DNA from: Limihaloglobus sulfuriphilus
GTDB taxonomy: Bacteria > Planctomycetota > Phycisphaerae > Sedimentisphaerales > Sedimentisphaeraceae
Reading direction: 5' to 3'
DNA: 64,000 nt
NCBI RefSeq assembly: GCF_001999965.1
Contig: NZ_CP019646.1
Span: forward strand, 1,302,001-1,366,000
The notes under the pieces: generated by a model
The model's database searches: none
What the model saw: the letters and a program-made list of their open reading frames with translations, nothing else
Told to the model about the DNA's origin: nothing
Position numbers and translations under genes: made by a program
Shown: positions 40,186 through 42,459 of the stretch, piece by piece
How positions within the stretch are numbered: the stretch's first letter is position 1
Layout: each line of letters begins with the position of its first letter

Positions 40186-41301
40186 TCAATTTGGCAAAAA
40201 GACAAAGAAAGTGCTTCCCTGGCCGACCTTGCTTTCAACCCACATCTTTCCTTTATGTGCCAGGACAATTTTCTGTGCTATTGCCAGACCAAGGCCGGTG
40301 CTTTTTTCACCAGAGGTGTTTTTAACACTGGCTTTTTTAAAAGCCTCGAATATGCAGCCCAATTCTTCCTGGGGGATACCTTGGCCCTGGTCGCTAACTG
40401 AAAAGACAATTCCGTCATTGGTCTCTTCAAGAGATATCGTTATTGTTGTTTCAGAATACGAAAATTTTAAGGCATTGGTAATTAGATTGATCAATACCTG
40501 CTGTATTTTTTGTGAGTCAAAAGATATATTCTTTACAGATTCCGGCAGATTAACCTTTAGAGTAATATTCTTTTTATCAGCTCCCAGTTTGCTTAATGAG
40601 GCAACATACTCAATAAATTCAGCAGGATTTACATCTTCCATCTTCAGCTGCATTTTCCCGGATTCTATTACTGAAAAATCGAGTAAATCATTGAGCAGCC
40701 TGAGCATAAAATCACACTGAGAGCCTATAGTGTTGAGTTTATAAATAAAATCCGAATCAAGTGATTTTTTCGCGGCATCCTTCAACAGCAATTCACTGAA
40801 TATGCGAATCGCACCTATAGGATTTCTGAGGTCGTGTGCAGCCATACCAAGAAAACTGTTTTTTAAGTCGTTTAACTTTTTCAGCTGGGCGTTTGATTTA
40901 TTAAGCTGCCTGCTTACATTAGCTAATTCACGATTTGTTTCAATCAGACATTTTTCAAAATTCCTGCTATCCTGCAAATCTATTTCACCAAAAACTGCAA
41001 TGCTATTACTGATTTTATGAAAAGAAAAATACATAGAAACTGCGTTCGCTGAGCCAGATTTTAATGTAAGAAGATGTTTGCGGCCGCTGCTGAGATAGTC
41101 ATCAAGTTTGATATCACTGGTAAAGATATCTGTGATATTCATATCTGTTATACTGCGGCTGACAATTTCCTGAGCTGCTATGTTTGATTCAATTATATTG
41201 CCGGATTCATCGCAAATAACTAAGAAATTTGCTGTTGACTCCGTTATAAGTTTACAAAGATGGTCTTTTATTGTAGAGCTGTTTATTATGGAATGGCTCA
41301 T
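40186..41301 (-). CDS. Soluble PAS-type sensor histidine kinase
   Basis: 371 residues and no membrane segment. Residues 20-110 look like a PAS sensor (NFLVICDESGNIIESN); residues 115-150 form a coiled coil; the H-box is SFLGMAAHDLRNPIGAIRIFSELLL near residue 165, and the ATPase domain has LITNALKFS (N-box), VSDQGQGIP (G1) and GEKSTGLGLAIAQKIV (G2). It is the third gene of a cassette, 15 bp after the 146-residue protein and two genes after the B12-binding protein. No response regulator is encoded nearby, so its target is elsewhere or is one of its partners. Confidence 0.92.
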   Translation of the reverse strand: MSHSIINSSTIKDHLCKLITESTANFLVICDESGNIIESNIAAQEIVSRSITDMNITDIFTSDIKLDDYLSSGRKHLLTLKSGSANAVSMYFSFHKISNSIAVFGEIDLQDSRNFEKCLIETNRELANVSRQLNKSNAQLKKLNDLKNSFLGMAAHDLRNPIGAIRIFSELLLKDAAKKSLDSDFIYKLNTIGSQCDFMLRLLNDLLDFSVIESGKMQLKMEDVNPAEFIEYVASLSKLGADKKNITLKVNLPESVKNISFDSQKIQQVLINLITNALKFSYSETTITISLEETNDGIVFSVSDQGQGIPQEELGCIFEAFKKASVKNTSGEKSTGLGLAIAQKIVLAHKGKMWVESKVGQGSTFFVFLPN

Positions 41302-41316
41302 GAGCTTATGAATCCT

Positions 41317-41757
41317 TCATGATCCGGATTCAACCATGTTTGAAAATACGGGAATGTTAACGATCAGATAGTTGTAAAATGGCACAATCTCGTCATAGGC
41401 CTTGTTTGAAAGCAGACTTTCCATAGCGGCAAGCCAGGCATTGAGCTGAGCAGGCCAATAGGTCTGGTGGAAGTTATGAGAACGATATGCTCTGAAAACC
41501 CACAACACAGTCTCTACCAGAACCTGAGGGTCATAAAATTTGAACATAGACTCCATGAAAAGAGCGTGGTTTTTGTGGTTATCCTGCATCATTGCTTTAT
41601 TGCCTTCTCCAATAAGTCTTATTAAGTCCGGTCTGGAAATAAGAATACGGTCAACCTCCGAAACAAGTTTAGCCCGTTTTTGAGCATACTCATTAGCCGC
41701 CTGCTCAGAGGGTTGTCTAAGCTGTTTTGCAGATTCAAGAAGGTCTGATTTACTCAT
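41317..41757 (-). CDS. Helical protein of the B12-kinase cassette, unrecognised
   Basis: 146 residues, all-helical by appearance, no signal peptide or membrane segment. The middle and end contain several aromatics and His (NHKNHALFMESMFKFYD, WVFRAYRSHNFHQTYW, AWLAAMESLL), as in small cofactor-binding helical domains, but I do not recognise the family. It lies 15 bp before the kinase and 69 bp after the B12-binding gene, so it is probably the link between them. No Cys is present. Confidence 0.8.
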   Translation of the reverse strand: MSKSDLLESAKQLRQPSEQAANEYAQKRAKLVSEVDRILISRPDLIRLIGEGNKAMMQDNHKNHALFMESMFKFYDPQVLVETVLWVFRAYRSHNFHQTYWPAQLNAWLAAMESLLSNKAYDEIVPFYNYLIVNIPVFSNMVESGS

Positions 41758-41826
41758 TTTGATCTCCTCTTTAGGATAGTAATTATTTTAGAGCCGCGGC
41801 CGATTGAGCTATCGTCTTTTTTATAT

Positions 41827-42459
41827 TTAATACTCTTTGGTCACTGTTTCGAGAGTAATAATTGAGTCGATAATATTCACCTGCGGATGCCCCGAAAGTT
41901 TCTCTTTGCCTCCCCATGAAAAAGCCTGGCCTCCAACAACAATTTCCTGATTTGGAAAAGACGCGGAAACTACCTCAATCGTTTCTATTAAATACGGAAT
42001 ACTGAAGTACAAACTTACGGACAACCCAAGTAAATCTGGTTTTTTCTCTTCAATCATACAGAGAAGGTCATGAGTAGGGGTATTAGCACCCAGAAAATAA
42101 CTGTCCCAGCCGTTGAGTTCAAAAATATCGGCTGCCATTTTTGCTCCAAGCTGATGATATTCATTAGGCGTGCAGCATACAATAGCACTTCTGTCAATAT
42201 GGTCGGCTGAAAAAATGATTGGATATACAAGATTCAGCAGCCCTTCGGTTACGGCAGTTGCCATATGCTCAACAGCAACAGATATCTGATTGTTCTGCCA
42301 CAACTGCCCGACTTCATACATACTCCGTTGAAAGAGGCCCGTATATAATTCATACACGGGTGTTTCGTGCTCAATAAGTCTTTCGACAATTTCAGTGCAG
42401 CCTTTTTTATTTCCTGAAATCAGGTCAGAAAGATAACTATCATAAAGACTTGAAAGCAT
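41827..42459 (-). CDS. B12-binding sensor protein with CarH-type light motif
   Basis: 210 residues. Residues 1-85 are a B12-binding-2-type helical bundle containing LWQNNQISVAVEHMAT: Trp, nine residues, then Glu-His. This Wx9EH signature marks the adenosylcobalamin photoreceptors of the CarH type (known). Residues 88-205 are the Rossmann-type B12 domain with NEYHQLGAK, matching ExHxxG with the lower axial His, and GVQAFSWGG-like VVGGQAFSWGG near the end. There is no MerR-type DNA-binding domain, which CarH has; so output must pass through the downstream helical protein and histidine kinase. An alternative is a corrinoid protein for methyl transfer, but no methyltransferase is near. Confidence 0.85.
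   Translation of the reverse strand: MLSSLYDSYLSDLISGNKKGCTEIVERLIEHETPVYELYTGLFQRSMYEVGQLWQNNQISVAVEHMATAVTEGLLNLVYPIIFSADHIDRSAIVCCTPNEYHQLGAKMAADIFELNGWDSYFLGANTPTHDLLCMIEEKKPDLLGLSVSLYFSIPYLIETIEVVSASFPNQEIVVGGQAFSWGGKEKLSGHPQVNIIDSIITLETVTKEY

What the first reader, a model, noticed from the sequence alone, without database searches (positions are those of the whole stretch)
40186..42459. A B12-binding light-sensor-like protein, a novel helical protein and a soluble histidine kinase in one cassette
The protein at 41827-42459 carries the Wx9EH motif (LWQNNQISVAVEHM) and ExHxxG (NEYHQLG), the signature set of CarH-type AdoCbl photoreceptors (established), but lacks CarH's DNA-binding domain. 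It is followed within 70 bp by an unrecognised 146-residue His- and aromatic-rich protein and then, 15 bp on, by a membrane-free PAS histidine kinase. This suggests light or B12 status read by a separate sensor subunit and sent to a kinase rather than straight to DNA. No response regulator lies nearby. The coupling is inference from gene order.
Basis: partly seen in the sequence, partly recalled or inferred. Interest (0 to 1): 0.8.

Follow-up and report, generated by a model that had tools for sequence, protein, structure and literature searches.

The report
Split B12 light sensor with kinase
Three neighbouring genes in a probable planctomycete encode what looks like a vitamin-B12 light sensor, a small pigment-protein-like globin and a soluble signalling kinase; the same set recurs in dozens of mostly anaerobic-looking bacteria, most of which lack the known enzyme for making the bile pigment that the known fused version of this sensor uses.

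Summary
In detail: 41827-42459 encodes a cobalamin-binding protein with Wx9EH and ExHxxG, 41317-41757 a 146-residue protein with no family match, and 40186-41301 a soluble PAS histidine kinase, all on the minus strand with 69- and 15-bp gaps. The 146-residue protein is not a new fold. A high-confidence model (pLDDT 96) is a globin like phycobiliproteins and the globin domain of photocobilins. The cobalamin protein's best solved relatives are photocobilins, fused AdoCbl + biliverdin photoreceptors. So this is most likely a split photocobilin feeding a kinase. The set is no accident: 76 relatives of the globin were found across many phyla; of 57 with adequate flanks, 53 have both a cobalamin protein and a kinase-like gene beside them. 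Natural globin-B12 fusions occur. The kinase's PAS-coiled-coil front also occurs on GGDEF proteins and as a small free-standing protein. Two differences from known photocobilins stand out: the biliverdin-contacting Asp is an almost invariant Asn here, and 46 of 48 carrier genomes lack a canonical heme oxygenase, while 47 of 48 have an AdoCbl-forming enzyme. Biliverdin is therefore an unlikely ligand. Light sensing itself is inferred, not shown.

The parts
41827..42459 (-). Cobalamin-binding sensor protein (210 aa): four-helix cap (PF02607) + Rossmann B12 domain (PF02310), Wx9EH and ExHxxG, no DNA-binding domain
   Evidence: Pfam; best PDB matches photocobilins 8J2W/8J2X/8J2Y; signature residues invariant in 48
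41317..41757 (-). 146-aa globin-like protein (photoglobin/phycobiliprotein-like fold, no His in the helix at 77-92), putative cap of the cobalamin protein
   Evidence: AF2 model and fold searches; conserved N60, W86, Y91, F96; natural fusions to B12 domains in L080 and L117
40186..41301 (-). Soluble histidine kinase (371 aa): cassette-specific PAS + long coiled coil + HisKA + HATPase_c
40186..42459 (-). Co-directional run of the three genes; gaps of 69 and 15 bp with no minus-strand terminator-like site, consistent with one operon

Best explanation
A split, three-protein relative of the photocobilins. The 210-aa protein binds adenosylcobalamin through its lower-axial His102, with Trp54 and Glu64-His65 around the adenosyl group, as in CarH and photocobilins. 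The 146-aa globin-like protein docks against this B12 domain where the fused globin domain sits in photocobilins, covering the corrin edge. Green light breaks the Co-C bond, adenosyl leaves, the B12 protein dimer and its contact with the globin rearrange, and the change is passed to the PAS-coiled-coil front of the soluble kinase, altering autophosphorylation and hence a response regulator encoded elsewhere. Shown by computation: signature residues, globin fold, conserved gene set, natural fusions, shared PAS module. Inferred: complex formation, light as input, direction of the effect on the kinase. In this family the globin probably does not bind biliverdin; it may be empty and structural, or bind another tetrapyrrole.
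For: Closest solved relatives of the B12 protein are photocobilins (1.3e-19), ahead of methionine synthase (4e-8) and CarH (4e-7). Wx9EH and ExH invariant in 48. Globin model pLDDT 96, matches smURFP, allophycocyanin and photocobilin 8j2x (Z 11.4, rmsd 3.1, 119 residues, model 17-142 on 227-346); the register puts photocobilin Trp296 on invariant Trp86. Gene set: 53 of 57 well-flanked loci have both partners; only one locus has a B12 relative in 268 kb of distal flank. Globin and B12 distances correlate, r 0.81; with the kinase 0.70-0.71 (shared ancestry not removed). Globin-B12 fusions: L080; Ilyobacter L117 (family profile 1.8e-27, followed by a GGDEF protein with a weak cassette-PAS match); Azospirillum L118 (PF00502 3.7e-9, kinase nearby). 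Same PAS-coil on kinases, GGDEF proteins and ~201-208-aa proteins. AdoCbl-forming enzyme in 47 of 48 carriers. Light control of a GGDEF output by a photocobilin is published (PMC10979010).
Against: No experiment shows light, cobalamin binding or interaction. Sequence profiles do not link this globin to photoglobins significantly (hhalign probability 1.4%, P 0.036); the link rests on fold, register and context. Helical folds can reach VIA Z near 13 by chance (note). Two well-flanked loci with the globin lack both partners nearby (L042; L064, where a B12 gene lies 2.9 kb away on the other strand). B12-binding proteins can report cobalamin level rather than light.
Confidence: 0.66

Rival explanations
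1. Cobalamin-status sensor: the same three proteins report AdoCbl level or redox/ligand state in the dark, and light is irrelevant.
For: Many carriers belong to groups known mainly as anaerobes (Desulfobacterota, Bacteroidales, Cloacimonadota), where light may be scarce and corrinoid-dependent metabolism important. Apo, AdoCbl-dark and light states all differ in activity in the published photocobilin-DGC (PMC10979010), so AdoCbl alone can be a signal.
Against: Wx9EH is the signature of light-responsive cobalamin domains (PMC10979010, PMC11796333) and is invariant here. The globin partner is of the light-pigment fold.
Confidence: 0.2
2. Dual-chromophore sensor like canonical photocobilins: the globin binds biliverdin or another linear tetrapyrrole (scavenged, or of anaerobilin type) and adds red-light sensitivity.
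For: Globin fold close to bilin proteins including biliverdin-bound smURFP; Trp296 equivalent invariant; three carriers have HutW above cut-off; two have heme oxygenase.
Against: The Asp270 equivalent is Asn in 76 of 78 rows, the others being one gap and an Asp in L080; no conserved Cys; no canonical heme oxygenase in 46 of 48 carriers and no HutZ above cut-off. In AbDPcob a His at this position is held responsible for weak biliverdin binding (PMC10979010).
Confidence: 0.15
3. Heme-globin-coupled kinase: the globin binds heme and senses O2 or NO, with the B12 protein a side partner.
For: Heme globin-coupled sensor domains (DosC, BpeGReg, AfGcHK) are among the structural matches.
Against: The helix at 77-92, where the proximal His would be expected, has no His, and no His column in the whole protein is invariant (H61 54, H64 53, H94 64 of 78). 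Natural fusions are to B12 domains.
Confidence: 0.04
4. Corrinoid methyl carrier of a methyltransferase system that happens to lie beside a kinase.
For: Same two Pfam domains; weak NCBIfam hits to MtgC/MtbC far below cut-off.
Against: No methyltransferase beside it in the window. The genome's carrier-type paralogue (G000:C1:508318, in L113) sits beside an ATPase that looks like a corrinoid-reactivation protein and lacks Wx9EH, so the two types are distinct in one genome. The gene set is conserved with kinases.
Confidence: 0.03

Closest known systems
Photocobilins (SasPcob 8J2W/8J2X, AbDPcob 8J2Y; PMC10979010)
   Same: B12 domain with Wx9EH and E/DxH plus globin-like domain; Trp296 equivalent conserved; light published to control an attached output enzyme
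   Different: Here the two domains are separate proteins, the output is a separate PAS histidine kinase, the biliverdin-contacting Asp is Asn, and carriers mostly lack heme oxygenase
Photoglobin family (Schneider et al. 2022, paper not held; cited through PMC10151467 and PMC11796333)
   Same: Non-heme globin associated with B12-binding domains
   Different: Free-standing 143-166-aa subfamily without significant sequence-profile match; the paper could not be read, so it may already list such operons
BBAG-2 bilin-binding globins with B12-binding neighbours, Myxococcales (PMC10151467)
   Same: Separate globin and B12-binding genes side by side
   Different: BBAG-2 clusters carry a bilin reductase, their genomes encode heme oxygenase, and they bind biliverdin; here kinase/GGDEF partners and usually no heme oxygenase
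CarH/LitR
   Same: AdoCbl-binding signature residues
   Different: No DNA-binding domain; the signal presumably goes to a kinase
AerR (Rhodobacter; PMC5362033)
   Same: B12-binding photoreceptor protein that acts on a separate partner
   Different: AerR acts on the DNA-binding regulator CrtJ; no globin or kinase

Membership tests
Photocobilin | Light-type cobalamin domain (Wx9EH, E/DxH) | tested here: met
   W54, E64, H65, E100, H102 invariant in 48; best PDB matches are photocobilins
Photocobilin | Globin-like second domain | tested here: met
   globin fold; 8j2x Z 11.4, rmsd 3.1 over 119 residues
Photocobilin | Both domains in one polypeptide | tested here: not met
   separate genes in the window; fused only in relatives
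Photocobilin | Biliverdin-contacting Asp270 | tested here: not met
   Register: aligned residue is Asn60; Asn in 76 of 78 rows
Photocobilin | Bound AdoCbl and biliverdin, light-driven spectral change | not testable with these tools
   needs purified protein
Photoglobin | Significant sequence-profile relation to photoglobin domains | tested here: inconclusive
   hhalign probability 1.4%, P 0.036, though ungapped over residues 60-86
CarH | MerR-type DNA-binding domain | tested here: not met
   the 210 aa are occupied by the two B12 domains; no HTH match
BBAG-2 (bilin biosynthesis-associated globin) | Heme oxygenase in the genome | tested here: not met
   no PF01126 in own genome (99.97% complete)
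Heme globin / globin-coupled sensor | Conserved proximal His | tested here: not met
   no His in the helix at 77-92 of the window protein; no invariant His column in the family
Corrinoid methyl carrier | Adjacent methyltransferase or activase | tested here: not met
   none beside the cassette in the window; PAS kinases instead in relatives

The most novel reading that the evidence does not exclude
A distinct class of bilin-free B12 light sensors of anaerobes, built from three separate proteins, in which a phycobiliprotein-like globin has lost (or never had) biliverdin binding and acts as the signal coupler between a photolabile AdoCbl protein and interchangeable PAS-coiled-coil outputs (histidine kinase, diguanylate cyclase, small adaptor).
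Probability: 0.4. Interest if true: 0.75.

Novelty: new variant of a known kind. Interest (0 to 1): 0.58.

Why it matters
It would show that B12-based photosensing is widespread among apparent anaerobes without heme oxygenase, and that the photocobilin hub exists as separable, recombinable parts with kinase output. It also poses a sharp question: what a bilin-fold globin does when the genome has no known enzyme to make biliverdin and the pocket Asp is Asn. Three small soluble proteins make it a practical starting point for tests and for optogenetics.

Tried and rejected
Sequence searches of the 146-aa protein in Pfam, NCBIfam and PDB gave nothing; the LH1 and FimX hits are chance-level. The photoglobin paper (PMC8717448) is not held. 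L086, L087 and L102, first taken as possible photocobilins by length, are B12 proteins with a C-terminal XRE-like helix-turn-helix, so they gave no globin domain. My first architecture counts chose the nearest kinase and were replaced by counts using the PAS module. The globin tree has a long branch for the window row and no supported placement, so no transfer claim is made. Heme globin, methyl carrier and CarH readings were tested and rejected. The HutW search is dominated by general radical-SAM hits; only the three above cut-off are counted. The collection scan uses conserved peptide patterns, so it undercounts divergent relatives.

Full report
What is there. Three genes run on the minus strand from 42459 down to 40186: a 210-aa cobalamin-binding protein, a 146-aa protein and a 371-aa histidine kinase, with gaps of 69 and 15 bp and no minus-strand terminator-like site in the region scanned. 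Upstream and co-directional are infC- and thrS-like genes (my reading of the ORFs); downstream are electron-transfer-flavoprotein-like genes. The genome is one 3.87-Mb contig, 99.97% complete. A Phycisphaeraceae contig (L080) lies in a genome of the same class, so the organism is probably a Phycisphaerae-class planctomycete. That it is an anaerobe is inference.

The cobalamin protein. It carries PF02607 and PF02310. Its best solved relatives are the photocobilins 8J2W, 8J2X (1.3e-19) and 8J2Y (1.3e-17), ahead of methionine synthase and CarH. W54-x9-E64-H65, E100 and H102 are invariant in 48 relatives. In CarH and photocobilins these residues hold the adenosyl group and ligate cobalt (PMC10979010). 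The same genome has a carrier-type corrinoid protein elsewhere, beside a large ATPase that I read as a corrinoid-reactivation protein; it lacks Wx9EH. That contrast argues against the methyl-carrier reading.

The 146-aa protein. No sequence library recognises it, even as a 68-member profile. AlphaFold2 with that alignment gives pLDDT 96. Foldseek's top matches are phycobilisome proteins, smURFP and globins, all with E above 0.01 but probability 0.99-1.00. VIA-align gives smURFP Z 14.1, allophycocyanins about 12-13, globin-coupled sensors about 11-14 and photocobilin 8j2x Z 11.4. The helix at 77-92 has no His in the window protein and no His column is invariant in the family, so it is not an orthodox heme globin.

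Pocket residues. In photocobilin SasPcob, Asp270 binds the biliverdin pyrroles and Trp296 contacts its D ring (PMC10979010). The VIA range starts at an offset of 210, which puts these on Asn60 and Trp86. An ungapped sequence register between the two families, read from the SasPcob sequence and plasmid-borne relatives, gives the same pairing. Position 60 is Asn in 76 of 78 rows (the others are a gap and an Asp in L080) and Trp86 is invariant. The profile match itself is not significant (hhalign P 0.036), so the homology rests on fold, register and gene context.

Conserved gene set. A genome-collection scan gave 76 loci with a globin relative, in Bacteroidota, Desulfobacterota, Planctomycetota, SAR324, Cloacimonadota, Fibrobacteria and others. 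Among 57 with at least 1.6 kb on both sides, 55 have a cobalamin protein and 53 have both partners within 2.2 kb on the same strand; in the distal flanks (268 kb) only one locus has a cobalamin relative. Gene order varies: B12-globin-kinase 22, B12-kinase-globin 16, globin-B12-kinase 6, globin-B12-PAS protein without recognised full kinase 7, and others. Conservation of the set without conservation of order argues for a functional unit. In a sample of 294 genomes of the window's phylum only four carry the globin. Distance matrices of globin and B12 protein correlate at r 0.81, globin-kinase 0.70, B12-kinase 0.71; species relatedness contributes to this and was not removed.

Fusions. Globin and B12 domains are fused in L080 and in Ilyobacter polytropus L117, where the globin matches this family's profile at 1.8e-27 and the next gene is a GGDEF protein with a weak match (3.6e-8) to the cassette PAS-coil. 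In Azospirillum thermophilum L118 a globin domain matching PF00502 Phycobilisome at 3.7e-9 is fused to a B12 domain, with a kinase nearby; that case belongs to the photoglobin side rather than to this exact subfamily. L048 shows a kinase-B12 ORF, but its ATPase domain is truncated, so it may be a frameshift or assembly product.

The kinase. HisKA and HATPase_c are clear. PAS_8 matches 12 of 30 family members (best 1.8e-4), and the model shows a PAS-like fold followed by a long helix and a catalytic domain (pLDDT 88.5); Foldseek matches include PAS and LOV histidine kinases. No membrane helix is indicated by hydropathy. The PAS-coil front is shared with GGDEF proteins (L032) and with ~201-208-aa proteins that have no recognised catalytic domain (L025, L065, L056). 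In Bacteroidota the match to this front is weaker and partly limited to its end. The shared front is the likely docking module for the sensor; this is inference.

Ligand supply. Of 48 carrier genomes, including the window's, 33 have a PduO-type and 14 of the other 15 a BtuR-type cobalamin adenosyltransferase, so AdoCbl can be made in 47. Canonical heme oxygenase PF01126 is found in two and not in the window's genome. HutW passes its cut-off in three, HutZ in none. Many carriers are MAGs, so single absences mean little, but 46 of 48 is clear. The phyla concerned may lack heme oxygenase generally; the point is only that biliverdin is not made by the known route. Undescribed heme-cleaving enzymes or uptake of bilins cannot be excluded.

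Mechanism and novelty. The best reading is a split photocobilin whose light-labile AdoCbl protein signals through a globin partner to a PAS kinase; the receiving regulator is unknown, presumably among the 12 receiver domains elsewhere in the genome. Separate globin and B12-binding genes are already known in Myxococcales (BBAG-2, PMC10151467), and fused photocobilins, one with a DGC output, are characterised (PMC10979010). New here, as far as the held literature shows, are the three-protein kinase form, its breadth among apparent anaerobes, the Asn at the biliverdin position and the missing heme oxygenase. The original photoglobin paper could not be read and may describe part of this.

Noticed in passing
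L086, L087, L102: Planctomycetota B12-binding proteins carry a C-terminal XRE-like helix-turn-helix, a CarH-like B12 sensor with a different DNA-binding domain.
   Followed up: partly
L114, L115, L120: Streptomyces plasmid photocobilins (about 52-55% identical to SasPcob in the B12 part) sit between a PP2C phosphatase and a STAS protein, with a MarR regulator next: a stressosome-like setting.
   Followed up: no
L032:6127-8246, also L033, L015: In Desulfotignum a PAS-coil GGDEF-type protein and a PAS-coil kinase lie in tandem after globin and B12 genes, suggesting one sensor with two outputs.
   Followed up: partly
L025:3578-4180, L065:6151-6771, L056:6139-6765: Small proteins of ~201-208 aa with the cassette PAS-coil but no recognised output domain; possible adaptors.
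   Followed up: partly
L113:2223-5181 (G000:C1:506000-512000): Ordinary corrinoid protein without Wx9EH beside a large ATPase resembling corrinoid-reactivation proteins in the window's own genome.
   Followed up: partly
L048:3026-5005: Geofilum ORF joins a kinase with truncated ATPase domain to a B12 domain, followed by the globin and a complete kinase; real fusion or sequence error not decided.
   Followed up: no
G339:C30:86614-97995 (genome of L078): HutW above cut-off with HutZ-like genes 5-11 kb away in another planctomycete carrier, an anaerobic heme-use cluster that could supply a linear tetrapyrrole.
   Followed up: no
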